From: Malassezia japonica
Taxonomy: Eukaryota; Basidiomycota; Malasseziomycetes; Malasseziales; Malasseziaceae
Direction of reading: 5' to 3'
Length of the DNA: 64,000 bases
Assembly: GCF_029542785.1 (NCBI RefSeq)
Contig: NC_083375.1
Location: 310,001 to 374,000, forward strand
In this document: one piece after another, positions 3,150 through 47,838 of the stretch
How positions within the stretch are numbered: the stretch's first letter is position 1
Layout of the letters: each line of letters starts with the position of its first letter
Translations under genes and position numbers: made by a program
The notes under the pieces: model-generated
What the model saw: only the letters and a program-made list of their open reading frames with translations
What the model was told of the DNA's origin: nothing
Database searches by the model: none

Positions 3150-5126
3150 ATGCAAAAAAGTGCGCTGGCCGTGCGTCGCGAGCGGGCGGCGGCGGCGCGC
3201 GCGGCGGTCGTGCCGGAGCGCGTCGAGGAGGCGGCGGCCGCGCCTGCGACGCCCGAGCCGCGCCGCAAAGCGAAAAAGAAACGCACCGACGAGCCGAAAA
3301 AGGGCGAGGCGCGCGAGGCGCCGCGCACGCCGCGAGAGACCCCTCGTAAAGACGAGGCGCGCAAAGACGAGGCGCCGCGCACGCCGCACGACGTGCCACG
3401 CACACCAAGCACCCCGACGCACGCCGAGACCGTCCAGTACGTACCGCCGCGCCTCTATGCGCCGGACTACAAGGGGAGCCACAAGAACTGCGTGCGCTCC
3501 GACGGCACGCTCCTGTGCGGCCTCCGCGACGAGGCGCTGCTCGTGCGCGGCCAGTGCACGATCCACGTCGAAGAGGGGCGCGTGTACGCTGCCGGCGCGG
3601 TGCTCACGCCCGACACGCCGCCGCTCGTCGCGTACGTGCCGAGCGTGCACCCTGCTTTGGAGCTGATCGCGGATGCGGCCGTCGGCACGCACGCCGCGCT
3701 GCCCGGATTTGCGGCGGTAGTGCGCCTGACGCCGCTCTCGACCGGCATCGAGCATGTGGCGCGCGTCTGCCCGGTCGCCGGCCCCGATCCGTTTGCGGAG
3801 CTCTGGATCGTGACCGACGCGGCGCAGGACGCGGTGCGCACGCCGGACGAGTGGGCGCCGGCGCTCGACGCACTCACCGACGCGGACGACTGCATCGCGC
3901 TCGTGCGTGGCGCAAAGAATACCGGCAAGTCGACGTTTGCGCACCTCGCCTTGCACCACCTGCTGCGCACCCACCGCTTTGTCGCCTTCCTCGACCTGGA
4001 CGTCGGCCAGCCCGAGTTTGGGCCGCCGGGCTTTGTCTCGCTCCATATCTTTGACGCATCCGCAGAAGCCGGCGTCGTGGGGCCGGCGTGGGCGCTGCCG
4101 CGCATCGCGGTGCGCGCGCACTTTTACGGCGACGTCTCGCCCCGCGAGGACCCCGCGCGATACGCGGCGTACGTCGCGGACCTCGCCGAGTTTTTCCGCA
4201 CCGAGCTGCACTACTACCGCGACGACCGTGCGGTGCTCGGCCATATGCACAGCGACGCGCCTGCGCGGCCCAAGCAGGAGCGGCGCATGCCGCTCGTCGT
4301 CAACACCCACGGCTGGAACAAGGGCCTGGGCGCAGACCTCGTGCACCAGGCCGCGGAGCGGCTCCAGCCGACGCATGTCTTTGAGCTCGACTCGCGCGAG
4401 GCCGGCGCGCTCGCGGCGTTTGGCGACACGCCGTGCGGCCGCCACGCTGCGCAGGCGCGGCGGCGGCGCATCAACGCGGCCGAGGCACGCACGCTGGCCA
4501 CGCTCTCGTACCTGCACGCGACGCACCTTGCTACCCCGGGCGGCGCGCTGCTCGGCCGCTGGGACTTTTTCACGCCGCTCGTCGCGCAGCGGCCGTGGGT
4601 CGTGGACGTGGCCGAGGGCCTGCCCGGCGGCCTCGAAGTGCACGTCGATCCGTCGCTGGCGCTGCATGCGCTGAACGGCGCACTGGTCGGCCTCGTGGCG
4701 CGCACTCCGGGCGAGGCGCCAGACGGCGACGTGTGGCACGCGGCGCTCCAGCGCGGCGCACAGCCGGCCGTGCACGCGCTTGGCCTCGCGCTCGTGCGTG
4801 GCGTCGACCGCGACCGCGGCGTGCTGCACCTGCTCACGCCGCTCGCGCCGGCGCTCCTCGCCACGCGCCTCGAGGCGTCGTGTGCGGCGCTCGGCGTGGT
4901 GCACAGCGCGCTTGAGCTTCCGATCTGGGCGTCGCTCGACGCGGCGGCCTACGCCGACGTGCTCCAGCAGCGCGACGCGGACCCTGTGCCGATGCTCGCC
5001 GGCATGGCGCGTGCGGATGTGCCCTATCTGGCCTTTCCTACGGAGCTGCTCGCCTCGGATGCGATCGGCGCACGGCCGCGCAAGGTGCGCCGCAATTTAA
5101 TGCGCCGCGCCCAAATTCCTTCGTAG
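3150..5126 (+). CDS. GRC3: GRC3 polynucleotide 5'-hydroxyl kinase
   Basis: Clp1/Grc3/NOL9 family RNA kinase, 658 aa, single exon. In yeast Grc3 works with the nuclease Las1 to process ITS2 and prepares the end for Rat1; RAT1 is also in this window. The N-terminal ~100 residues are Lys/Glu/Pro-rich low complexity. The conserved part starts with YVPPRLYAPDYKGSHKNC. The P-loop is GAKNTGKST at about residues 254-262, followed by VAFLDLDVGQPEFGPPGFVS, which carries the family's Asp and the clamp region. NTHGWNKGLGADLV follows further on. It lies 26 nt after the MBP1 stop on the same strand, so its promoter must overlap MBP1. A CCTCCACT-like element (CTCCACTT, 3138..3145) sits just before the ATG. 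Confidence 0.93.
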   Translation: MQKSALAVRRERAAAARAAVVPERVEEAAAAPATPEPRRKAKKKRTDEPKKGEAREAPRTPRETPRKDEARKDEAPRTPHDVPRTPSTPTHAETVQYVPPRLYAPDYKGSHKNCVRSDGTLLCGLRDEALLVRGQCTIHVEEGRVYAAGAVLTPDTPPLVAYVPSVHPALELIADAAVGTHAALPGFAAVVRLTPLSTGIEHVARVCPVAGPDPFAELWIVTDAAQDAVRTPDEWAPALDALTDADDCIALVRGAKNTGKSTFAHLALHHLLRTHRFVAFLDLDVGQPEFGPPGFVSLHIFDASAEAGVVGPAWALPRIAVRAHFYGDVSPREDPARYAAYVADLAEFFRTELHYYRDDRAVLGHMHSDAPARPKQERRMPLVVNTHGWNKGLGADLVHQAAERLQPTHVFELDSREAGALAAFGDTPCGRHAAQARRRRINAAEARTLATLSYLHATHLATPGGALLGRWDFFTPLVAQRPWVVDVAEGLPGGLEVHVDPSLALHALNGALVGLVARTPGEAPDGDVWHAALQRGAQPAVHALGLALVRGVDRDRGVLHLLTPLAPALLATRLEASCAALGVVHSALELPIWASLDAAAYADVLQQRDADPVPMLAGMARADVPYLAFPTELLASDAIGARPRKVRRNLMRRAQIPS

Positions 5127-5154
5127 GAGCAGTAGTAGTGGAGGTGTCTTGGTC

Positions 5155-6318
5155 ATGCCGACGACCGAGTCGGGCGCGGGCCGCTCGTACTTTGCGACGC
5201 CAGCGCTGGACCATGCGTTTGCAGGTATGGCCGCCGGTACGATTGCGACGCTGTGCATGAATCCGCTCGATCTGATCAAGACGCGGTTCCAGGTGAACAC
5301 GACGGCCTTTTCGCCACATCCCGCCGAGCGCTCGCTGCTGTACCAGCGGCTGCATGCGCGCCCGTGGCTCTTTTACAGCCTCGGCGGCAAGACGGGCGTG
5401 GATATCATCGATGCGCTGCGTGGCATCGTCGCGCGCGACGGCGTCCAAGGGCTGTACCGCGGCGTGATGCCCAACATTGTCGGCAACGCCTCGTCGTGGG
5501 GCCTCTACTTTTTGTGGTACACCATGATCAAGGAGTACATGGCGCGCGGCTCGCGCGACGACCAGCCCGTTCGCCTTACTGCGACCGAGCACCTGCTTGC
5601 GGCGACCGAGAGCGGCGTGATCACCGCGTTTATGACGAACCCCATTTGGGTGATCAAGACGCGCATGTTTACCACCTCGGCCCAGTCTATGGCCCACGGG
5701 CCGAGTGCCGCAGGGACACGCAGCGCGGCGAGTGCGCCGGACCTCGCCGGGACGCCCGGCATGGTCGGCCGCCCCGGCGCGAGGCCAGTGGTGTACAAAG
5801 GCCTCTGGGACGGGCTCGTGTCGACGCTGCGGACCGAAGGCATTGCCGGCCTGTACAAGGGTGTCGGCCTCGCGGTGCTCGGCGTGTCGAACGGCGCGAT
5901 CCAGTTTATGGCGTACGAGCAGCTGAAGCAGTGGCGCTGCAGCGCCGTCCTGCGCCGAGAAGGGCGCACGCCACCCTTTGCCGAGACGCAGCTCGACAAT
6001 GTGCGCCTGAGCAACACCGAATACACGACCATTTCCGGCGCCGCGAAGCTCGTCGCAATCGCAGTTACATACCCCTACCAGGTGGTCCGCTCGCGCGTGC
6101 AAAACCACGCGACAATACACCTCTACCCCAATGCCTGGGCGTGCGTCGCGCGGACGTACAAAGAAGAGGGCCTGCGTGCATTCTACCGCGGCTTTGCGAC
6201 GAACGCGGTGCGTATTCTGCCTGGGACATGCGTGACGTTTGTCGCGTACGAGAACGTCTCGTGGGCGCTGCGCAGTGCCGCGCGCCTGCGCGACGAGCGC
6301 GACGTGCATAGGTCATAG
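5155..6318 (+). CDS. FLX1: Mitochondrial FAD/folate carrier, FLX1-like
   Basis: Inner-membrane solute carrier of the SLC25 family, 387 aa, single exon. Three tandem ~100-residue modules carry the signature PX(D/E)XX(K/R): PLDLIKTR near residue 37, PIWVIKTRM near 163 and YPYQVVRSR near 304. The PIW variant in repeat 2 and the overall order match the FLX1/SLC25A32 group, which moves FAD or folate into the matrix; substrate is inferred, not proven. Between repeats 1 and 2 is an insertion with Gly/Ala/Pro residues (around residues 180-210). The start is the ATG at 5155, not the in-frame TTG at 5149. AGTGGAGG at 5137..5144 lies just upstream. It ends 13 nt from the convergent PMT1 gene. Confidence 0.85.
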   Translation: MPTTESGAGRSYFATPALDHAFAGMAAGTIATLCMNPLDLIKTRFQVNTTAFSPHPAERSLLYQRLHARPWLFYSLGGKTGVDIIDALRGIVARDGVQGLYRGVMPNIVGNASSWGLYFLWYTMIKEYMARGSRDDQPVRLTATEHLLAATESGVITAFMTNPIWVIKTRMFTTSAQSMAHGPSAAGTRSAASAPDLAGTPGMVGRPGARPVVYKGLWDGLVSTLRTEGIAGLYKGVGLAVLGVSNGAIQFMAYEQLKQWRCSAVLRREGRTPPFAETQLDNVRLSNTEYTTISGAAKLVAIAVTYPYQVVRSRVQNHATIHLYPNAWACVARTYKEEGLRAFYRGFATNAVRILPGTCVTFVAYENVSWALRSAARLRDERDVHRS

Positions 6319-9028: not shown

Positions 9029-9771
9029 ATGACGCTGGCGGCGGTGAAGCAGGCGCTGCGCAAAGAGGCCGCGCACGCCGTGCAAGGGCTCTCGCGCAGT
9101 GCGCTCGAGGAGCAGTGTACGTAGCGCAGCTAAGACAGCCGCGGCCGTGTGCACCGCAGTGCAGGCGCTGCCGCAGTTTCGCGCCGCACGCACAATCAGC
9201 ATCTACCTGAGCATGCCGTCCGGCGAGCTCGATACGTGGGCGCTGTGCCGCGCAACGCTCGACGACAAGGCACTATACGTGCCGCGCTTTTCGACGCTGG
9301 CTGCCGGGTCGAACGCCAACGTGAAGCACAAGTTTACGACAGACATGGAGATGCTCCGCGTGCACGACGCCCACGAGCTCGCGCACGGCCTGACGCAGAA
9401 CAAGTGGGGCATTGCCGAGCCGCCGCCGACGCGCGACGGGCAGGACCGCGAGGCGGGTACGTACTCTGTCTAACGAAGCGCTCGCCGACGCGTCGCTCGA
9501 CGTGATCATCGTGCCGGGCATGCTCTTTGACCGCCGCGGAGGACGCCTTGGGCACGGCAAAGGCTACTATGACCGCTACCTCCAAAAAGCCGCGGCGCAC
9601 GCCACGGCGCGCGGGCGCCCGGTGCCGTACATTGGTACGTTGCTTTTTGCTCACCCAGTCGCCGTCGCGCTCCGCGAGCAGGTGCGCGACGCGCCCGTGC
9701 CGATGGACGACACCGACGTCTCGATCGACGCGCTGATCACGGCCGACGAGACGCGCATCTTTTCTCCCTAG
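9029..9771 (+). CDS. FAU1: 5-formyltetrahydrofolate cyclo-ligase
   Basis: Converts 5-formyl-THF to 5,10-methenyl-THF using ATP, in one-carbon metabolism. Exons 9029..9116, 9139..9456 and 9479..9771 encode 232 aa; both introns are 22 nt with GTACGT donors. Family marks are RTISIYLSMPSGELDT in exon 2, where the substrate-binding segment begins, and PGMLFDRRGGRLGHGKGYYD in exon 3, the nucleotide-binding loop. Exon 1 alone looks like nothing, and only removal of the first 22 nt joins it in frame. The gene is divergent from PMT1 and ends 14 nt from the convergent acyl-CoA-binding protein gene. FLX1, a possible folate carrier, is two genes away; I make nothing of that. Confidence 0.93.
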
Positions 9772-18294: not shown

Positions 18295-20400
18295 CTAGTC
18301 CGAGTCGCTATCAGAGTCTGAGTCGTCGTCCGAGTCGTCATCCTCGTCGTCGTCATCCTCGTCGTCCTCGTCCTCGTCGTCGTCCTCTTCCTCGCCGTCC
18401 TCGGCATAGACGACCGACGGCTTCACACGCTCGCCGCGCATGAGCGCCATCTGTCCCGCGATACTGTCCTCCTCAGGGTCCGAGATGTAGTCCTCGTCCG
18501 CCTCGGTCAGCGCCGGCGCCTCTTCCACACGGAGCTTGAGCAGCTGCGAGGCGTCCGAGCCGAGGTACGAGTCCGACTTGACTTCGAGCATGAACGTAAA
18601 CACACCCGGCTCCGGCGGCGCCTGCACGTTGATGCGCACCGTACGCAGCTCGCTCGTGCCGAGGTCCGTAAACTTGGTCGGCGCAATGATCAGGTGGTCG
18701 TTTTTGTGGTCGCCCATCTGGATGAACCAGTGCGGCTTGCGCTCCTCGGCAAAGTACGGCGCGTACGCCACGCCCATCGGCTGCTTGCCGCTCTGCACGT
18801 CGGACGTGGGGTCCTTGGCAAACTCGTCCGTGCCCGGGCGCACATGGCTCGCCTTGGCCTTGTCCTTGGCGTCCAGGCGGCGGCCCGAGCGCAGGAGCGA
18901 GCCGTCGCGCTTGAGCGGCAAGAGGCGCACCTTGACGACGACCTGCATCAGCGCCTCGGTCGTGACATTCTCCTCGCCGATCACTGCGTGAGAAAAAAGT
19001 AAACGTACCGGTAAAGTAGGTGTCGACCAGCTCGATGCGCGGCCACTCGCCGAGCGCCTTGATGCACTCGGCGTACGCCGCTTCGGACATCTTGCCGTCG
19101 CCCACCAGGACCTTGCGGCGCTCCGCATCCGGCACCTTCCACAGACCCTGGAGGCCCTTGGACGACACCGCCTCGTGCTCGAGCAGCGCCTCGGCGAGAG
19201 GCAGCGTCATGTGCGGCAGCTGCAGGACCTCGGCAAGGCTACCGCCCTGCATCGGCACCGCCTGCACGCCGCACGGAATCATGTCGCGGATCGTCGAGGT
19301 CTGCGCAAGGCGCTTGTGCGCCGTGCTCATCGCGAGCAAGCTCGTGAGGAGCTTGTCGGTGTACCGGCCCACGGCGTATTTCACTGCGTCAGAAAACAAA
19401 CGTACCCTGCTCGACGCGGCTGCTCGACGAGGAAATGCGGTGCAGATACGCGGCGAGGAGCACCAAGGCGCGGCGCACCTCCTTTGGCTCGTCCGTAACG
19501 AGGTCCGAGCCGTGCAGGCGCTTGTACACCGCGAGCGTCTCTTGCTCCAGCGCGGCGTACGCGGCTTCGTCGGCGGCCTGCAGCTCGGAAGCGTAGGCCG
19601 TGAGTTCTTCGGTCTGGCCGAGGAGCTGAAAGATGTCCGCCGCGCCCATTTCCTTCTTGAGCTTCGAAAAGAAGCCCAGTGCCGTACTGTTCAGGACGCC
19701 GTCCTTGGTGCGCGAGCGCGTGCCATACCACCAGCGGGCCACGAGCAGCGGCAGGCCGATACCGAGGATCAGGCCGTAGGCGCTCAGCACCCACACGTTG
19801 TTTTGGCTCTCGACGATCCATGTCGGCAGCGCGATACCCAGCGACATTTCCTGACGGCCGTCTGGGTGGCCGTACAGCTCGAGGTTCTTCCTGGTGGTCT
19901 CGTCAGTGAGCGACTTGTAGGCCTTGGTGAGCTCGATGTAGTGAGCGTCGATCTCCTCCTTGGTTTGGTTCGCGACATTGCGCAGTTTATCCGGGTGGAA
20001 CTGGACACTGAGCTTGCGGTAGCGGCGCCTGATCTCCTTCTCGGTCGCCGACGCCGCAATTCCGAGGATCTGGAAAGGATCGTAGACGGCGTGCATCGAG
20101 GTCGAGGACGTGGTCGCGATGCAGCGCGTGAGGTACGCCACTGCTGCCCATCCCGCAATCAGTACAAAGGCACGAAATAGTGTCGAGTAAGGCGACGTGC
20201 GCATCAACGACTTGGCGACCTGTGTCTTGTGCCCGAGCTGGTCGAGCCATCCGTGGGCCGCGGCTGTGTGAGAGGAGCGACGTACTTTTCTGGCGAGAAA
20301 AGAGTGTGCGGTACGTGTATGGCACCATGAAAGCGATCACCGCCGTGAGGGCGAACGTATAAAACTGCCCGCCCTCATCGTCGTACTTGTACCCCGACAT
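18295..20400 (-). CDS. SEC63: SEC63 ER translocon J-domain protein
   Basis: Recruits Kar2/BiP to the Sec61-Sec62 channel for post-translational import into the ER. Four exons, complement of 20286..20400, 19406..20263, 19009..19383 and 18295..18983, encode 678 aa; introns are 22, 22 and 25 nt. Exon 1 has the short luminal start and first membrane helix (FALTAVIAFMVPYTYRTLF). Exon 2 has a second helix and the J domain (DPFQILGI, KLSVQFHPDKL with the HPD triad, YGHPDGRQ), then a third hydrophobic segment GLILGIGLPLLVARWWYGT. Exons 3-4 are the Brl domain, with VPYAPFFxE-like AYAPYFAEERKPHWF. The last ~30 residues are almost all Asp, Glu and Ser, matching the acidic Sec62-binding tail. Confidence 0.95.
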
Positions 20401-25512: not shown

Positions 25513-27201
25513 CTAGTACTGCAACTCGAGCGGCTCCTGCGCGCCCCCTGCGTCCAGGTCGCGGTAGCCCACCGGCTCGCTCGGCGGCTCGGGCGGCGGC
25601 GGCGCACGCACCCGTACCTCGGGCGCGCCGTGCGCCGTGGGCGCGGTGCGCATCGGATCGGCGAGGTAGCGATTAAAGTAGTCCGCCTGGGTTAGTCGAG
25701 AGACGTACATGTGCCGCACGCCCGCCGCTCGCCGCGGCCAAGACGGGCGCGTGCTTGTTATGGATGTGCTTCGCGAGGTGCTCGCGCGTCTTGAAGAGCT
25801 TGGCACAGATCCCGTTGGGGCTCAGCACGCGGCACTGAAACTTGCCCGCCTCGACCTGGGCACTGTACAGGTCGACGACGCGATTCGTTTCCCTGCATTA
25901 GTAGTGCGACGTACGCATCCTTGTCGATCGCCCCGAGCTCGGCGGTGGCCGCGGGGTCGAGGAGCAGGGCAATCTTCTTGTCGAGGTGGTCCATCCACGA
26001 CGCGTCGTTCTGCTCCTCGTCGCTCGCTTCCTGGCGGCGCACATGATACGCACTGCGGCGCACGAGCTCCTCGGCAAAGTCGCAGTGCAGGCCGAGGTAG
26101 TAGTCGCAGTGGTAGACGGTCCGCAGCAAGTCCAGCACGAGATCCAGCTCTTTTTTGCACTGCGTCAGGTCGGATACGTACCGCCGCCTCCGGACGCGCG
26201 CTCGCGTCGAGGCCGAGGTGCGCGACACGGCGCTCGATCGCCGCAAGCGCCTCTTTGGCCTCGCTTATGTCGCCAATCTCGCTTTGAAGCTTGTGCACGA
26301 GGCGCCGCGCCTGTGCCAGGTCGTGGGCGAGCCGCTCTGGCGCATTGGTCGACCCAGGCGCGATACGCAGTCGGCTGCTTGACGGGCGGTCGACGACGGC
26401 GAGGTGCAGCGCAAACTCGCCAAAGCGGTGCCCATCCAGCGCCGCAACGGCGGCACGGACGTCGACATCCTCCTCAAACACCGCAATGCCGGCACGCTGC
26501 CAGTTGCGCTGCACGATCGGCTCGAGCAGCGCGGCGTACCGGAATCCGGGGTACGTCTGCAGGTGCGCTTCAAGGTCGCTGCGTGGCAGCTCCGGCGGCC
26601 ACGCACGCACAAGCAGCGAGTGCTCCGTGTCCGGGGGAATCGGCAGCGCCTCGGTATCAAAGTGCTCTTTGTTTCCGGCGCGGTTCGTTACCGTGTACAG
26701 GACGCCGCCCGTGCGCTCTTCGCCGAGGTCCATCGACACGCGGTCCAGCGCCCCGTCCTCGAGCTCGCGCACCCACGCCGCGGGGCCTGCGCACCCTGCG
26801 CGCCGGCGCGCGTGCCGCAGACGCGCCTGGTCTTCGTCCGGCGCGTACTTTTCGCGGAACCATGCCTGGTCCTTGTGTTCGAGGAAAAACGCCCAGAGCT
26901 GCCTGCGCTTGTGCTCGGCCTTGTACACCTTGTACGCTTCGTGCCATGCCTCGTCCGTATCGAGGTCCTTGGCGAGGCCTTGGTCCTGCATGTATTGTAC
27001 ATAGCTGCGGAACGACAGGCGCCCGTCGAGCTCGAGGGGGTCGCGTCCCCCGCCTCCTTGGACCGAGACGCTGCGCGGCCGCTCGCTCTCGCGCACCACG
27101 CCAGTGCCGTGGTGCGATACGGCGCGCGCCGCGCGCCGCTCGTCTCCAAGACGCGGCCGCTTGGCGTGCGGCGCCTCGCTCGGCGCACGCGAAGGCAGCA
27201 T
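25513..27201 (-). CDS. ARS2: ARS2/SERRATE (S. pombe Pir2) RNA effector protein
   Basis: Binds the nuclear cap-binding complex and steers transcripts to processing or exosome decay. Exons complement 26182..27201, 25915..26159, 25709..25892 and 25513..25686 encode 540 aa; all three introns are 22 nt. The N-terminus after a Ser/Arg-rich leader has LSFRSYVQYMQDQGLA, RRQLWAFFLEHKDQAWF and REKYAPDE, the SERRATE N-terminal block. An RRM-like middle region (VRAAVAALDGHRFGEFALHL) is followed by DLLRTVYHCDYYLGLHC in exon 2. Exon 3 forms the zinc finger CRVLSPNGICAKLFKTREHL with AKHIHNKH. The last exon ends with VGYRDLDA, the conserved C-terminal motif. Start is ATG 27201; CACGTG lies at 27214..27219. 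Confidence 0.93.
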
Positions 27202-32094: not shown

Positions 32095-33045
32095 ATGACG
32101 GCCGGCGACGAGGCGGGGTTGTACGTCCCGCGCAACGCGCCCGTGTCATTCGGTGCACCATTCCTTAGCACTGGTGTGGTAACCAGGCGCCCCAGTTCGT
32201 GGCGCGACTGGAGCATATTCCCCTTGAACCTAAAACAATTATTTTATGTGTTTATAATGAATGGCATCGGCGCGATGATCATCAGTGGCGCGGCCAATTT
32301 CGGCGTAGCGTGTGCCATGTACCGCACGACCTCGCTGCCGATTCGCATCTGGGTCTTTAGCGAGAACACGATCGCGGGCGACATGGGCGTCACGGTGATT
32401 ATCCAGCAGCTCATCACGATGATCATCACCTCGACGCTGTGCAACCACGATCTGCGCCACGGCATTCCCGCGCTCGAGCACCCGTGGCCGCCACTGCAGC
32501 ACTTTCCGGCGAACCCCAGCCCAAACGGGTCGTTCCTCGGCACGGACCACCCCAAAGCGGTCGGCAACCAAGCGCCACTCTATATGGGCAACGGCGAGCA
32601 GCGCTCGCGCCTCCAGCAATTCTGCCTCTGGTTCATCCGCGCGATGTGCACTGGCAGCGAGCGCAATGCATTCCTGCTCCGCGGCCTCACACTGCGCCAG
32701 CGTCTGGAGCGCCTGGTCTGGACCGCGGTCCAAGGCCTCTGGATGGCCGTGCTGACCTTCTGGTGGTACTGGCCGATCGCCATTGCGATCGTAGCGCCCA
32801 TCTACCAAGGCGACAATTTGCAAGGAAAGTGGACCGCGCCCATCATCAAGTTGTTGTTTGGCGGCATCATGGGCCTGCTGACCAACCCCATCATGGCGCT
32901 CCTCGCGCTCGGCGCCGAGGCGAACGTGCGCCGCACGCACCCCGACCTTGCGCTCTGGAACGAGGGAGAGAAGGGAACGGGCTCCGACGCACTCCACCGC
33001 GACCCCGAGCAGCAAAAAGGCGTGCTACGCAACGTGCACATTTAA
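32095..33045 (+). CDS. Fungal multi-pass membrane protein, DUF2456-like
   Basis: Single exon of 316 aa, function unknown. The start is ATG 32095; the frame above it opens at GTG 32050 inside a CACGTG (32047..32052). It has four hydrophobic segments: QLFYVFIMNGIGAMIISGAA, GVTVIIQQLITMIITSTL, AVQGLWMAVLTFWWYWPIAI and LLFGGIMGLLTNPIMALLAL. Charged loops between them carry HDLRHGIPALEHPWPPL and a Gln/Arg-rich stretch. Similar unnamed fungal proteins with WSIFPLNLKQLFYVF-type openings are known to me as DUF2456; no activity has been assigned. The C-terminus is hydrophilic. The convergent HEM12 stop is 38 nt away. Confidence 0.75.
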   Translation: MTAGDEAGLYVPRNAPVSFGAPFLSTGVVTRRPSSWRDWSIFPLNLKQLFYVFIMNGIGAMIISGAANFGVACAMYRTTSLPIRIWVFSENTIAGDMGVTVIIQQLITMIITSTLCNHDLRHGIPALEHPWPPLQHFPANPSPNGSFLGTDHPKAVGNQAPLYMGNGEQRSRLQQFCLWFIRAMCTGSERNAFLLRGLTLRQRLERLVWTAVQGLWMAVLTFWWYWPIAIAIVAPIYQGDNLQGKWTAPIIKLLFGGIMGLLTNPIMALLALGAEANVRRTHPDLALWNEGEKGTGSDALHRDPEQQKGVLRNVHI

Positions 33046-36422: not shown

Positions 36423-38232
36423 ATGGCGAAAGTGAACAGTTCGGATGTGCTCCCCTCCTCGGCTGCGCAGAAAGAGCTGAGCAGCTATACCTATGGCGAT
36501 GGCCTCTCCATTTCGGAGCTGGTCGACTCGCGCACGAACGGCGGTCTGACGTACAACGACTTCCTCGTGCTGCCTGGCTTTATCGATTTCCCGGCGCACA
36601 AGGTGGACCTACGCACGCGCGTCACCCGCAACGTCGTGCTCAACACTCCCTTTTTGTCGAGCCCTATGGACACGGTTACCGAGACGGATATGGCGATTTC
36701 GATCGCCCTGATGGGCGGTATGGGTGTGATCCACAACAACATGTCGGCCCAGGAACAGGCCGCCATGGTCCGCAAGGTCAAGATGTTTGAGAACGGCTTC
36801 ATTGCGGAGCCGATGGTGCTGTCGCCCGGCGAGACGGTGGGTGACGTGCTCGAGATCAAGGAGCGCCTCGGCTTTGCCGGCATTCCCATCACCGGTACGT
36901 ATCACAGGCGGCAAGAGGATGAAACGAATAATCTGCTGTAACCTTCGTTCTGCCTAGGTACGGCCTTAGACTTGGTCGTGCGATGCAGACAAAATTACTC
37001 ATGTCCACTGATTGCCGCCTCTCTTGGCGAACAGGCTAACCACAGAGAACGGTGCGCTAAAAAGCAAGCTGGTCGGTATGGTGACCGGCCGTGATATCCA
37101 GTTCCGCGACCCCGAGACGCCGCTGAACGAGATCATGACCCGCGATCTCGTCACTGCCCAGCAGGGCATTACGCTCGAGGAGGCCAACCGTATCCTGCGC
37201 GACAGCAAGAAGGGCAAGCTGCCGATCGTCGACGGCGAGGGCAACCTCGTCTCGCTCCTTGCCCGCTCGGACCTGCTCAAGAACCAGGACTACCCCCTGG
37301 CCTCGAAGCGCCCCGAGAGCAAGCAGCTGTACTGCGCTGCGGCCATCGGCACGCGCCCGCACGACCGTGAGCGCCTCGACCTGCTCGTCGAGGCCGGTCT
37401 CGACGTGGTGGTGCTCGACTCGTCGCAGGGCAACTCGACCTACCAGGTGGAGATGATCCAGTGGATCAAAAAGACGCACCCCAACCTCGAGGTGATTGCC
37501 GGGAACGTCGTGACGCGCGCCCAGGCCGCCACACTGATCGAGGCCGGTGCGGACGCGCTGCGTGTCGGCATGGGTTCTGGCTCGATCTGCATCACCCAAG
37601 AGGTGATGGCCGTCGGCCGCCCCCAGGGCACTGCCGTGTACGCTGTCGCAGAGTTTGCGCGCAAGTTCAACGTGCCCGTGATTGCCGACGGTGGTATCCA
37701 GAACGTGGGCCACATTGCCAAGGCGCTGTGCCTCGGCGCGAGCGCCGTGATGATGGGCGGTCTGCTTGCCGGTACGTCGGAGAGCCCCGGTGAGTACTAC
37801 TACCGCGAGGGCCAGCGCCTCAAGGGCTACCGCGGCATGGGCTCGATCGAGGCGATGGAGCACCAAAAGAAGAAGCAGTTCACCGGCGCGACCGGCCGCG
37901 CCTCGAAGAAGGTCGACAAGGTGGCGAAGGACGTCGGCTCCGAGAATGCCGCCACCCAGCGCTACTTCTCCGAGGCGGACGCGGTGAAGGTCGCGCAGGG
38001 TGTCTCGGGCTCGGTCCAGGACAAGGGCAGTGTCAAGAAGTTTGCGCCCTACCTGTACACCGGTCTGCAGCACTCGCTCCAGGACATGGGTGCGCCGTCG
38101 GTCGATATCCTCCGCGACCAGATCCGCGACGGCAAGCTGCGCTTTGAGCTGCGCACCGCCAGCGCCCAGGTCGAGGGCGGCGTGCACGGCCTGGCGCACT
38201 ACGAAAAGCGCCTCTTTTCCTCGTCGACATAG
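36423..38232 (+). CDS. IMD2: Inosine-5'-monophosphate dehydrogenase
   Basis: Rate-limiting NAD-dependent step of GTP synthesis (IMP to XMP). Exons 36423..36894 and 37046..38232 encode 552 aa. Exon 1 has [17 protein letters not shown] and [11 protein letters not shown]. The 151-nt intron interrupts the CBS pair exactly where GFAGIPIT joins [18 protein letters not shown]. The catalytic loop is [12 protein letters not shown] with the active Cys, followed by [19 protein letters not shown] and the flap [11 protein letters not shown]. Key Arg and Tyr of the flap are present. The intron is the only long one seen here and holds a box C/D snoRNA (separate entry). Confidence 0.96.
36907..37019 (+). ncRNA. 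Intronic box C/D snoRNA candidate in IMD intron
   Basis: Inside intron 36895..37045. A perfect 8-bp terminal stem pairs ggcggcaa (36907..36914) with ttgccgcc (37012..37019). One base inside the 5' arm is AGGATGA (36916..36922), one mismatch from box C RUGAUGA; directly inside the 3' arm is CTGA (37008..37011), an exact box D. That arrangement forms the k-turn bound by Snu13 in C/D snoRNPs. Length 113 nt is normal. The likely guide is the stretch before box D, aaaattactcatgtcca; I could not match it to rRNA from memory. C' and D' boxes are not clear. Eleven bases precede it and 26 follow, including the branch motif GCTAAC, so debranching and trimming would release it. Confidence 0.75.
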
Positions 38233-42800: not shown

Positions 42801-43902
42801 CGTGCGCAAAGACTTGGATGAGAAGGCGAAACGAGTCGGCATCCTTGGTCATTAGCACGTTTTCTTCCAGCAAAGCAAGCACTTCGACCGCCTCCCGTGT
42901 CTTCCCGCGCATCGCGCAGCATTGCAGCAGCATGTTGTACGCCGCCGTACTCGGCAGCGACAGGTGCATTGCGTGCGCGGCCTGCGCCAGCGTCAGGGCT
43001 GCAACCAAAAAGTCGTCCTCGCTTCCCTCGGGCAGCACCGTACGGTCGCTGGGGTTCGTGTGCAGCTCCATATCGCGTGTGCAGAGTGCGTCAATGAGCA
43101 CAACATAGGTCGTGGCGTTGGGCGGCGGCCCGTGGGCCTGCATCTCACGATAAATACGCAGCATGCTCGATGCAAGCGATCCCGCACGGCGCAGCGCGCT
43201 GAGTATGTTGTTGAAGCCGACGAGCGTGCGCTTGGTCGGGTCGAGCTTCAGGAAAGACTCGATCGACGACTGGATCTTGTTCGTGTCGTGCGCATCGAGC
43301 GCCGTCTGGAGTCCAGTAAGGACATCTTGCTCCTCACTCGTCATAATCCCAGTGCTGCTTTCGATCAGCGGAGACTCGGATTGCGCAGCATGCGGCAGCG
43401 TGTCGCGCGGTGCGCCCGACACCGAATTGCGGCGCATGCCCTTCTTGGGGCCCAAGGGGAACTCCTCGATCTCGATGTGCGCCAGCTTCAAGAGACCGTA
43501 GCTGATGCTGTGCGATCGGCGGAGTTTGGCTGTCGGTCCATTGTCACCCCCACCATGCGATGCGAATGCAGACCGCAGCTCGTGCGGCGCAGGTAGCGTA
43601 CTGTGCATTTGTTCCGGCGAAAATTGCACCGACGCCGGCGAGCGCGAACACGACGTGCGCGATGTGGCGCGGCGATCGCCCGATGAACTCCCGGTGCCCG
43701 TCAGCGCCTCTTCGTCATCACTGGTGCTCGTCGCGCCGGACTGCGTCTGGTACGACGCCCGGGTCGAGGGAGTATGCGACCCACTGCTGGGAGGGGTGGA
43801 CGGCGAGTTGTATGACAATGCAGAGCGCAGCCCATGCGAGGAGGAGGTTTGTGTACCTGCCAGCCTCTCGAGCTGCGCCGCAAGCTTTGAGAACAGGGGC
43901 AT
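39817..43902 (-). CDS. Large pentatricopeptide-repeat protein, probably mitochondrial
   Basis: Single exon of 1361 aa, the largest gene in the window. Many ~35-residue helical hairpins fit the PPR pattern: NATTYVVLIDALCTRDM, AAYNMLLQCCAMRGKTREAV, TYLYNTVISKLSRARKAEQA, VTYGAAINACVRTGDEARAT and PPYNTMIQYYVHSCMDRDKA, and MPAYLARMVSQGILPTAYIA. The repeats cluster at residues ~235-500 and ~880-1330. The first ~130 residues are Ser/Thr-rich with an amphipathic basic start (LFSKLAAQLERLAG), compatible with mitochondrial import. Fungal PPR proteins usually act on organelle mRNA stability or translation; the target cannot be inferred. The ATG at 43902 is the first possible start. Confidence 0.85.
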   Translation of the reverse strand: MPLFSKLAAQLERLAGTQTSSSHGLRSALSYNSPSTPPSSGSHTPSTRASYQTQSGATSTSDDEEALTGTGSSSGDRRATSRTSCSRSPASVQFSPEQMHSTLPAPHELRSAFASHGGGDNGPTAKLRRSHSISYGLLKLAHIEIEEFPLGPKKGMRRNSVSGAPRDTLPHAAQSESPLIESSTGIMTSEEQDVLTGLQTALDAHDTNKIQSSIESFLKLDPTKRTLVGFNNILSALRRAGSLASSMLRIYREMQAHGPPPNATTYVVLIDALCTRDMELHTNPSDRTVLPEGSEDDFLVAALTLAQAAHAMHLSLPSTAAYNMLLQCCAMRGKTREAVEVLALLEENVLMTKDADSFRLLIQVFAHDTELAREDETETQQQSRRIKACIEVFETFERVASALAIIQPGTEAFSKPRCQRVWATMLDAHFTLGDAAGAVSLFERLIAAQPYGMSTPPVDEQIISTMVLGFVRAGDIRSAVEWLHHLQDSELPQPSVQALEGVLAAVMQQPPTEAAHYLNPVGEALLARPVLLLPIAAKCLLHLATVLEKRKVWKQLSDDEIKPCLDTLRRLADKIFSTYSDKKPLKTKQQTVPVAAILRLIGQLTFVGRPGDAAAFFRLAVLALRHADTTAPCCVALLCDACHLPMAIADAALQQPHTLSDACVRLTAMVTLVAPALEGMRGSLLDGYYASLTHLYEAASRDLNGDMSALALSEGAWRSITDAFCAEELAATHIDTPTTSTGLGKLLAELAQLPVNAPRGAARRPMLDVARLSTLLRNKYGEEGLVLLHAWLSPDDPAAAAPAKSGPKHTKTTSEGKSVAAEAVAAPHALHAYIEGVHSPNLPAVRNLDGALGGALQSLARAHGQLQADELYARLKSSVGRGTYAAPGALAVLINAFGRMGQLGRIDELYAMGMHVLASRPNEHEWRVSHWFQLEDGMITALSHAGAGERANAHRERLVAAGHVPSASAYAALIATIQERTDDAVVAEELFGESQRLGVRPTTYLYNTVISKLSRARKAEQALRLFDAMRSANLRPSSVTYGAAINACVRTGDEARATQLFAEMESQQTFQPRVPPYNTMIQYYVHSCMDRDKALHYYEKMQQAGVRPSAHTYKLLLDVWGSIAPVQPERQQAVFARLVADRLVGVQGTHWASLLHTQGTVLHDLDRALETFESIAEHAPAGPRNGISTVPDAVVYESLFSVFVAHGRTDLMPAYLARMVSQGILPTAYIANLLIKGYAQDGPLGLVEARRVFDAMIDPPAGIAAAGNHLPRHHGAGALGMRRERVGHGSRGHAVDRANVLGALVNREPSTYEAMIRAELSYGHQDRASALFEKMKARAFPVALIHRARALFDHVGPRATA

Positions 43903-45594: not shown

Positions 45595-47838
45595 CTATCG
45601 AGTGGGAAAACGCGCGCTGCGGCGCGGGGTGCGCAGGTCGGGCTCTGCATTCTCGGCGAGGTGGGCGTCGATATCCTCGGCGTTCCACACGGGCTTTGTG
45701 CGCAGCTTGCGTGTGGATCGCGTAGGACTCGGTGAGCGCGGCTGGAAGAGCAGCGAGTCGTCCGCACTCGCTTCCGAGAACCGCGCCGTGTTGGTCGACT
45801 TGGGCGCGAGCACCGGCGAGTCGAATACCGCGCTATCGCCTCCAGACACTGCGACATCGTCGCTGCATGCGCTTTCGGAGACGTCGGCAGCCTGCGCCTG
45901 TGTCGCCGCGGTGAAGCGCGCAAAGAGGTCGAGTTTCTTGCCCATAAACGCATCGTTCTGTTCCATCTGGGTGAGCTAAGCGACGTACCTCGGTGCGCAG
46001 CTGCTCTTCGTAGTAAAGCTGCATCTTGCGGAGCGCACTCTCGAGATGCAGCGCCATCTCGTCGCGTACCGTCTTTTCGATGACCATGCATAGGTTCTCG
46101 GCGCGCTCGCACTGGGTTAGGAGGGCGACGTACCTTGTTGCGGAGGCGCTCGTTCTCTTCGATGAGCATCGTCACGAACGGATCCTCGTCCTCGTCATCG
46201 CTTTCGCCCGCGTCGAGCACGGTCATGCCAGACGTATTTGGCAGCGACGACGACCGCTTTGTGGGCGACGCACGCTCGTTGGGCGCGACGTGGATGCCGA
46301 CGTCCTTGGCCATCGCACTGAAGCGCATCACGTTCGCGCTCTCTTCGAATCCCGTCCCGTAGGGGTTCACGTTTACAATCATCACCACGCGCCCGTCGCC
46401 GGTAAAGAACGACTGGAAGAGCTCCGTGAGCTTCGAGTGGCGGAACGGAATGATGCTCTGCCGGCGCCGCGGCTTGCTCTGCGAGTCACTCGCGTCCGCA
46501 CGCTCCCCGTGGAAGATTCCGGCACGGATCTGGTTCTTGCGCATGGTCTCGAGGCACTGGCCGAGGCACATGAGGCTCTTGTTGATATTCCCTGCCTCTT
46601 TTAGGCGGGGACCAGACGGGACCTCGGTGTTGGCCACGCGTTCACTGCCCGCGAGGTCGACGATGCTCATGCGGGAGATAAAGTACTTGCGCGAGAGCCC
46701 GGCAATATCGCGGTCCTCGAGTGCGACACTCGTCTGCTCGCGCAAAATCTTGATCGTAAAGACAGAGTGCGAGCGCGAGCTGGTACGATTTGCCATCGTG
46801 CTAAAGACGGTGCGGTTCTCTTGGCCGCGGTATAGCAACTCCTTCGCCTCGGCAATCGACGAAACCTTGATCTCTTTGAGGCCACTAACGTACTTTCCTC
46901 CGCTCTCAACCTCGCTCTTGAGCAGGAGGGGGCGGCGTGCGGCGCTCGTATCGTCGCGCGGCTCGCGCTGCAGCAGCGATGCGCTCGGCGTGTCGAGCAG
47001 GTCGTAGAGTTTTTCATTGTACACCTCGACGTAGGATACCCATACGCTGTACCGGAACTCGTCCGACACCGGGACGCATGTCGGGTCCACCTCGAGTGCT
47101 GGCACATCGCGCGGCTTGCGCGCGAACGACAGCAGGCTCTTGCTGGGGTCCGAGACGCCGGGCTGGACGCCGGTGAGGCCCATCGGCCGGATCGCCTTGG
47201 TGCACTCGAGTCCTTTCGTGCTGTTAAAGATGACATCAATCGCACGGGGCAGGATGCCTGCCTCGCCAGGCGCCTGGCTGCCTTGCACGGTATAGGTCTT
47301 GCCCGAGTTGGTCACGCCATAGGTAAACACGAGGCTATTGCGCCCTTCGAGCAGGTCGCGCACCAGCGGCAAGGTCGTCTCTTGAAAGAACTGCGACTGC
47401 ATCGCCGCCGGCGTCGGTGCATCCGTCTCTGGCCGCGAAAACACCTTGGAAAAGGTATACTTGGCCGGCACGGCCTGGCCTCGCAGTCGCGACGCGGTGC
47501 GCGCGCTCATTTCGTGGGGGTGCGTCATGACGACTTCCGTGTCCGAAACGACGTCCAGCGAAAACGTCTCGGGCCGCTCGTCCTCTGGCCGGATGCGCAG
47601 GTATGCCTGGGTCAGTCGTCGCACGTACATGGATCGGCTCGCTCGACACGCCGAGCTCCGCAAGGCGCGCAACACTCGACGCGGACGGCGTGCGGAGGGC
47701 CGACATGGGCACGCGCCCCCCGACCGCACCTTGCACGGATCGTTTCATCTCGCCTCTCCCTTCCTTTGTGGGCGATGCAGGCGCTTGTGCGGCGCGCGCC
47801 GCGTTGCGCCGGTCGTACAGCGCCTGGACATGCGACAT
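45595..47838 (-). CDS. Kinesin-6 motor (MKLP/KIF20, S. pombe Klp9 type)
   Basis: Plus-end motor family acting on anaphase spindle midzones. Four exons, complement of 47629..47838, 46134..47606, 45989..46111 and 45595..45966, encode 725 aa; all introns are 22 nt. The motor P-loop is YGVTNSGKTYTVQG, where VTNSGKT is the kinesin-6 form; the large loop-6 insertion between VIFNSTKGLE and FRYSVWVSYVEVYNEKLYD is also typical. Switch I NRTSSRSHSVF and switch II MSIVDLAGSERV are intact. The tail is short: a coiled coil (LIEENERLRNK, MVIEKTVRDEMALHLESAL) and a basic Ser/Pro-rich end with SPSPTRSTRK, a possible Cdk target. It is shorter than animal MKLP1, so a midzone role is inferred from the motor only. 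Confidence 0.9.

What the first reader, a model, noticed from the sequence alone, without database searches (positions are those of the whole stretch)
36895..37045. The one long intron holds a box C/D snoRNA
The 151-nt IMD intron contains a perfect 8-bp terminal stem closing a near-consensus box C (AGGATGA) and exact box D (CTGA) with correct spacing. This explains why this intron escapes the 22-nt norm. It suggests that long introns in this genome may be a direct index of intronic ncRNA genes.
Basis: partly seen in the sequence, partly recalled or inferred. Interest (0 to 1): 0.75.

Follow-up and report, generated by a model that had tools for sequence, protein, structure and literature searches.

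The report
Intronic snR54-type C/D snoRNA in Malassezia
The one well-supported long intron in this stretch of a skin-yeast genome carries a small guide RNA that very probably directs ribosomal RNA methylation, in the same host gene where baker's yeast keeps its equivalent RNA.

Summary
The 151-nt intron of the IMP dehydrogenase gene contains a box C/D snoRNA: C AGGATGA, D CTGA and a 9-bp (not 8-bp) stem. 1 of 20,000 shuffles of the intron scores 7 or more; the real score is 8.75. The organism is a Malassezia. In S. cerevisiae the IMD4 intron hosts snR54. Here TAACCTTCGTTCT pairs 12 of 13 with 18S 971-983, the snR54 site A974 (yeast letters recalled). The D guide pairs with 25S 1512-1522, predicting Cm1516. 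Relatives were read only through proteins called without splicing: 10 of 16 intron tails can encode ATGTCCACTGA, at most 4 of 16 for the shuffled motif; one tail fits both guides. Introns of EF1beta, EF1gamma and RPL7 (intron 2) pair best with sites of yeast snoRNAs, but raw scores as high occur in RPL7 intron 1, which has no box D. So intron length is only a partial index of ncRNA. Malassezia rRNA was not obtained; expression is untested. A real, ordinary, conserved snoRNA with a possible new 25S target.

The parts
36423..36894 (+). IMP dehydrogenase (IMD) exon 1
   Evidence: Pfam IMPDH 108 bits on 36423-36893
36895..37045 (+). 151-nt phase-1 intron, GTACGT...CTAACCACAG
   Evidence: sequence; highest score in the strict coding/splice scan; unspliced relatives' ORFs join exon 2 at this point
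36906..36914 (+). terminal stem, 5' arm (AGGCGGCAA)
   Evidence: 9 pairs with 37012-37020
36916..36922 (+). box C AGGATGA (1 mismatch to RTGATGA)
36939..36951 (+). D' guide TAACCTTCGTTCT, 12 of 13 pairs with 18S 971-983 (yeast numbering, recalled letters); site A974
   Evidence: highest of 56 recalled Nm sites; P0035 tail compatible
36953..36956 (+). inferred degenerate box D' (CCTA), placed by the D'+5 rule for A974
   Evidence: inference; 2 mismatches to CTGA
36958..36981 (+). internal hairpin, 8-bp stem 36958-36965/36974-36981
   Evidence: fold z -2.45
36980..36986 (+). inferred box C' (GCGATGC, 2 mismatches)
   Evidence: inference from sequence
36997..37007 (+). D guide ACTCATGTCCA, 11 pairs (2 G-U) with 25S 1512-1522 (yeast numbering, recalled letters), predicted Cm1516
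   Evidence: core ATGTCCA conserved with box D
37008..37011 (+). box D CTGA
   Evidence: possible with the guide core in 10 of 16 relatives' tails
37012..37020 (+). terminal stem, 3' arm (TTGCCGCCT)
37036..37040 (+). branch-point motif CTAAC
   Evidence: sequence; the 22-nt introns carry motifs of the same type
37046..38232 (+). IMP dehydrogenase exon 2
   Evidence: Pfam IMPDH 324 bits

Best explanation
The intron encodes a box C/D 2'-O-methylation guide snoRNA orthologous to fungal snR54 (U59 of plants and vertebrates). Inferred steps: after splicing and debranching of the IMD pre-mRNA, exonucleases trim to the terminal stem, which is protected by the snoRNP proteins on boxes C and D. The D' guide directs fibrillarin to 18S A974. 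The D guide, different from the one in Neurospora, directs a second methylation, most likely 25S C1516 (yeast numbering). The intron has stayed long because the snoRNA must fit in it. Shown here: the anatomy, guide complementarity to recalled yeast rRNA, conservation of the guide core in relatives, and the yeast-like host. Not shown: the RNA itself, the methylations, and pairing with Malassezia rRNA.
For: Boxes and stem beyond chance; fold z -3.30. S. cerevisiae IMD4's only intron hosts snR54 (PMC4937481, passages). Of 56 recalled yeast Nm sites, A974 scores highest with the snoRNA interior (20, next 18); 50 of 5000 shuffles do as well there. N. crassa CD49, intronic, has a 13/0 D' guide for 18S Am971 (PMC2780460 Table 1). 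10 of 16 unspliced tails can encode ATGTCCACTGA, at most 4 of 16 in 3000 motif shuffles. The P0035 tail fits both guides, 65 nt apart against 63 here; 89 of 20,000 shuffled D' guides fit it. 25S 1512 is the only position the window fits over 10 or more pairs with G-U allowed, and the six tails that fit it over 8 pairs fit over 11. EF1beta, EF1gamma and RPL7 intron 2 each pair best with rRNA stretches holding recalled yeast Nm sites 649/650, 2815 and 805/807; EF1gamma also matches Rfam snoR38, E 0.11. Fibrillarin is encoded.
Against: No Rfam family reaches its gathering score; best C/D match 18.7 of 45 bits, E 5.7. Box D' is poor (CCTA). In an unrestricted comparison with all recalled rRNA the A974 match (20) is not the best: other stretches give 23 and 21. 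RPL7 intron 1, without a box D, reaches 28, so raw complementarity proves little. The D guide score is reached by 23 of 150 shuffles. Six of 16 tails do not fit the motif. My own box-plus-stem scan found none of the three control snoRNAs, and EF1beta and RPL7 gave no Rfam match at E up to 1. PMC4937481 lists snR54 in Saccharomycetales and Diptera only in its table. Malassezia rRNA was not obtained; no expression data.
Confidence: 0.85

Rival explanations
1. A box C/D snoRNA, but not orthologous to snR54: an unrelated snoRNA that came to sit in the same host gene, with the A974 match a coincidence.
For: The D' match to yeast letters has one mismatch, is reached by 50 of 5000 shuffles and is not the best unrestricted match; box D' is poor; the D guide differs from N. 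crassa CD49, whose D guide targets 26S Um2682.
Against: Same host gene as yeast; highest of 56 known sites; the P0035 tail fits both guides at similar spacing.
Confidence: 0.1
2. The stem and boxes are a structured intron element for splicing or host-gene regulation, not a snoRNA gene.
For: A terminal stem could bring the splice sites together in a long intron; yeast has introns with other RNA structures (PMC4937481, passages).
Against: What is conserved in relatives is the guide-plus-box-D string.
Confidence: 0.03
3. Chance resemblance in an intron that is long for another reason.
For: Box C has a mismatch, D' is degenerate, Rfam does not call it.
Against: 1 of 20,000 shuffles; conservation in relatives.
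Confidence: 0.02

Closest known systems
S. cerevisiae snR54 in the IMD4 intron
   Same: Host gene (PMC4937481 passages) and, by complementarity, the site 18S A974 (snR54 named for the equivalent site in PMC2780460 Table 1)
   Different: Here the D guide points to 25S C1516, an added predicted target. The yeast snR54 sequence itself was not obtained or compared
N. crassa CD49 (18S Am971 by D', 26S Um2682 by D)
   Same: Intronic double guide with the snR54-type guide at D' (Table 1)
   Different: Its D guide is for Um2682 (snR67 type), not the one seen here; its host gene is not given in the passages seen
Human U59A/B and plant U59
   Same: Listed as homologues for the same 18S site in Table 1 of PMC2780460
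   Different: No sequence comparison made here; hosts not checked
[not shown]
   Same: Best C/D alignment in Rfam; the boxes and stem align
   Different: 18.7 bits against a gathering score of 45; E 5.7

Membership tests
Box C/D snoRNA | Box C (RUGAUGA) near the 5' end | tested here: met
   AGGATGA, one mismatch
Box C/D snoRNA | Box D (CUGA) near the 3' end | tested here: met
   exact CTGA at 37008; possible with the guide core in 10 of 16 tails
Box C/D snoRNA | Terminal stem bringing C and D together | tested here: met
   9 bp
Box C/D snoRNA | Internal C'/D' boxes | tested here: inconclusive
   CCTA and GCGATGC are degenerate (sequence)
Box C/D snoRNA | 10-21 bp guide complementarity to rRNA obeying the D/D'+5 rule | tested here: inconclusive
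   D: 11 pairs, 2 of them G-U; D': 12 of 13; both against yeast rRNA typed from recall. Malassezia rRNA not obtained; raw scores this high also occur elsewhere
Box C/D snoRNA | Stable RNA bound by the C/D snoRNP proteins | not testable with these tools
   no expression data; fibrillarin gene present
Box C/D snoRNA | Reaches an Rfam family's gathering score (a library criterion, not a defining one) | tested here: not met
   0 matches; best 18.7 of 45 bits. The EF1gamma control also fell below gathering, 31.8 of 45
snR54 family | Guide for 18S A974 (yeast numbering) | tested here: met
   12 of 13 pairs with recalled yeast letters; highest of 56 known sites, 50 of 5000 shuffles; not the best unrestricted match
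snR54 family | Same host gene as in S. cerevisiae (IMP dehydrogenase intron) | tested here: met
   host; yeast precedent PMC4937481
snR54 family | Sequence match to an snR54 model or to yeast snR54 | tested here: inconclusive
   no snR54-named family among matches up to E 10; whether Rfam holds such a model was not checked; yeast snR54 sequence not obtained

The most novel reading that the evidence does not exclude
The host gene and the D' guide (18S A974) have stayed fixed from ascomycete yeasts to Malassezia, while the D guide has been swapped. In Malassezia and several related lineages it now directs a 25S methylation at C1516 (yeast numbering), eight bases from a site that is methylated in plants, human and Neurospora (C1508 by offset). 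Long introns in this 22-nt-intron genome then mark a small set of ancient host-snoRNA pairs.
Probability: 0.4. Interest if true: 0.45.

Novelty: new member of a known kind. Interest (0 to 1): 0.35.

Why it matters
It gives a concrete reason why one intron stays long in a genome whose introns are mostly 22 nt. It would extend a host-snoRNA pairing (IMD-snR54) from ascomycete yeasts to a basidiomycete, alongside introns of EF1beta, EF1gamma and RPL7. It makes one testable new prediction, a 25S Cm at the equivalent of yeast C1516. It also shows that unspliced gene calls in protein catalogues can test intron conservation when DNA is not at hand.

Tried and rejected
Rfam on the window: nothing at gathering; at E up to 10 one weak C/D family and one lncRNA match taken as chance. 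Another string of the recalled yeast 25S, GTGGACATTTG, was considered for the D guide and dropped because the guide base before ATG is C, which cannot pair there. 25S 1616 fits six tails at 11 pairs, but the window only up to 9. The minus-strand C/D-like site near 32417 overlaps a long plus-strand ORF and was taken as chance. Further long-intron candidates were not accepted or not pursued: 5085-5280 and 43716-43857 in the window, 395 nt at the NOG2 locus and 175 and 88 nt at the fibrillarin locus, 84 and 76 nt at the RPL23 loci. The NOG2 locus gave no RNA family match at E up to 1. The box-plus-stem scan at score 3.5 or more found no coding-strand candidate at the EF1beta, EF1gamma or RPL7 loci: their boxes or stems deviate more than the scan allows, so the scan is insensitive. 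A wider sampling of the genome for long introns was not possible.

Relatives' DNA: only viral contigs was searched for the IMPDH gene, without result. The rRNA patterns found nothing in viral contigs; the single genome-contig hit, L023, is an AT-rich eukaryotic rDNA unlike a fungus and was not used. Paper searches for the expected basidiomycete 18S string found nothing.

Full report
What is there. The window lies in a genome of 8.43 Mb in 9 contigs. Exon 2 of the gene at 36423-38232 is 92% identical to IMP dehydrogenase of Malassezia obtusa and 91% to M. furfur, so I take the organism to be a Malassezia. The gene is IMPDH by Pfam on both sides of the intron. The intron, 36895-37045, is phase 1 and ends CTAACCACAG. 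It holds box C AGGATGA (36916-36922), box D CTGA (37008-37011) and a 9-bp terminal stem (36906-36914 with 37012-37020).

Is it more than chance. The same scan over both strands of the window found two other places, with stem scores 6.75 and 9.0; the latter, near 32417 on the minus strand, overlaps a long plus-strand ORF. Of 20,000 dinucleotide shuffles of the intron, 13 gave stem score 5 or more and one of these gave 7 or more; the observed score is 8.75. The 115-nt unit folds at z -3.30 and the internal hairpin at z -2.45; the whole intron folds at only z -1.73. Rfam does not call it: no match at gathering, and the best C/D match is 18.7 bits against 45.

The 22-nt norm. A coding-plus-splice-signal scan gave 13 distinct short candidates in the window, 10 of 22 nt and 3 of 25 nt, besides longer overlapping alternatives. 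In a stricter scan the IMD intron scores highest. Over 244 kb (the window and 18 contig ends) a strict scan gave six introns of 22 nt, one of 25, one of 42 and three of 60 nt or more. The three are the IMD intron and two weak candidates that I do not accept.

Guides. Yeast rRNA was typed from recall and checked only by base identity at recalled methylation sites, 38 of 38 and 18 of 18. TAACCTTCGTTCT (36939-36951) pairs 12 of 13 with 18S 971-983; the site is A974 if box D' is CCTA at 36953. Of 56 recalled methylation sites A974 scores highest with the snoRNA interior (20, next 18), and 50 of 5000 shuffles reach 20 there. In an unrestricted comparison it is not the best: other rRNA stretches give 23 and 21. 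So this identification rests on the prior expectation from the host gene. S. cerevisiae carries snR54 in the only intron of IMD4; the same paper's table lists that RNA in Saccharomycetales and Diptera, its text in some Metazoa as well as Fungi (PMC4937481, passages). [quoted passage not shown] N. crassa CD49, intronic, guides 18S Am971 (snR54, U59) by D' and 26S Um2682 by D (PMC2780460, Table 1).

The D guide ACTCATGTCCA (36997-37007) pairs with 25S 1512-1522, 11 pairs of which two are G-U. Taken alone this is weak: 23 of 150 shuffles score as high in the right register somewhere in rRNA. The D+5 base is C1516. A known neighbouring site is Cm1489 in N. crassa, with human and plant homologues (PMC2780460 Table 1), and Cm1518/Cm2422 in a passage of PMC11542601 whose column headings I did not see. 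By offset from the U24 site this is yeast 1508. C1516 would be a different site and is not in the yeast list that I recalled.

Conservation. No DNA of relatives was fetched. But many database IMPDH proteins are gene calls that ignore splicing, so their N-termini translate the 3' end of the intron. The database lists were capped at the best 120 hits. Of the 141 proteins then held, 16 had a tail of at least 12 residues. Ten of the 16 can encode ATGTCCACTGA: P0003, P0020, P0021, P0022, P0026, P0027, P0035, P0053, P0089 and P0090. The shuffled motif fits at most 4 of 16 in 3000 trials. The ten are about seven independent lineages, since P0020-22 and P0089-90 are near copies. A start codon inside the motif (MSTD) also favours its being at the tail's beginning. 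The six misses are P0018, P0040, P0045, P0051, P0052 and P0079; P0018 and P0045 are short, and P0052 fits when G-U pairs are allowed. Tails first seen later (P0160, P0161) were not counted. P0061, P0063, P0097 and P0114 run on from exon 1 without a tail, so they are spliced or lack this intron.

Six tails (P0003, P0020-22, P0035, P0052) allow the full 11-nt pairing with 25S 1512-1522 followed by CTGA, and this is the only position that the window fits over 10 or more pairs. Without the window condition two of 5174 positions reach six tails at 11 pairs, 1512 and 1616. P0035, whose nearest named relatives are Parajaminaea, Sympodiomycopsis and Jaminaea, also contains LTFVL, which can encode TAACCTTCGTTCT, 65 nt before TGTCC (63 nt here). 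Of 20,000 shuffled 13-mers 89 fit that tail, and of 5172 antisense rRNA 13-mers 12 do, four of them at this 18S site.

Other host introns in the same genome. I looked up genes whose yeast orthologues host snoRNAs. The EF1beta intron (185 nt) pairs best with 25S 644-659, holding A649/C650 (U18; score 31). RPL7 intron 2 (245 nt) pairs best with 802-815, holding G805/A807 (27). The EF1gamma intron (156 nt) pairs best with 2812-2824, holding G2815 (snR38; 25). EF1gamma also has an Rfam snoR38 match of 31.8 bits, E 0.11, below gathering; EF1beta and RPL7 have none at E up to 1. These scores are not exceptional in themselves: RPL7 intron 1 (185 nt, no CTGA) reaches 28 at stretches without a known site. 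What speaks for the three is that the best match falls on the expected site each time. My box-plus-stem scan found none of them on the coding strand, and the EF1gamma unit folds at only z -0.73. The RPS22 gene has a 278-nt intron candidate without an RNA family match inside it. So four of these six long introns have C/D guide evidence; the genes were chosen as known hosts. Fibrillarin is present.

Limits. The rRNA genes were not found in this assembly by two patterns: the 13-mer complement of the D' guide occurs only in the snoRNA itself, and a 25S pattern gave one two-mismatch hit that I did not take for rRNA. The rRNA family searches did not complete. Expression and methylation are untested.

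Literature. Passages were seen of PMC8476143 (conserved snoRNA introns of RPL7 and NOG2 in intron-poor fungi including Malassezia sympodialis; snR54 and IMD4 do not occur in its main text), PMC4937481, PMC5033589, PMC8413462, PMC11542601, PMC7426719 (Malassezia genes contain very short introns) and PMC3596301; of PMC2780460 passages and part 1 of section 3. In two searches with Malassezia and snoRNA terms no listed title or abstract start concerns this snoRNA; only the held library was searched.

Verdict. A real box C/D snoRNA, very probably the snR54 orthologue in the same host intron as in yeast, with a possibly lineage-specific second guide. New member of a known kind.

Noticed in passing
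window, e.g. 9457-9478, 46112-46133, 25893-25914, 19384-19405: Ordinary introns are mostly 22 nt, with the branch-point motif starting 9 nt before the 3' end in the 22-nt candidates: a nearly fixed intron length.
   Followed up: partly
L024 1280-1524: RPL7 intron 2: by the D+5 rule its guide points at 25S G805 rather than A807; which yeast snoRNA serves which of the two is recalled.
   Followed up: partly
L027 (reverse complement) 997-1181: The EF1beta intron carries a U18-type guide and, read by eye, a 12-bp outer stem set well outside boxes C and D.
   Followed up: partly
L030 1227-1504: A 278-nt intron candidate in the RPS22 gene, which in yeast hosts snR44; no RNA family match inside it.
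   Followed up: partly
L024, RPL7 intron 1: A 185-nt intron without any CTGA: long, and not a C/D host.
   Followed up: partly
G000: Two rRNA string patterns find no rDNA in this 9-contig assembly.
   Followed up: partly
window 32281-32417, minus strand: Exact box C GTGATGA and CTGA with a 10-pair stem, opposite a long ORF; probably chance.
   Followed up: no
L023: A contig filed under a Clostridium MAG carries an AT-rich eukaryotic rDNA unit, apparently contamination.
   Followed up: no
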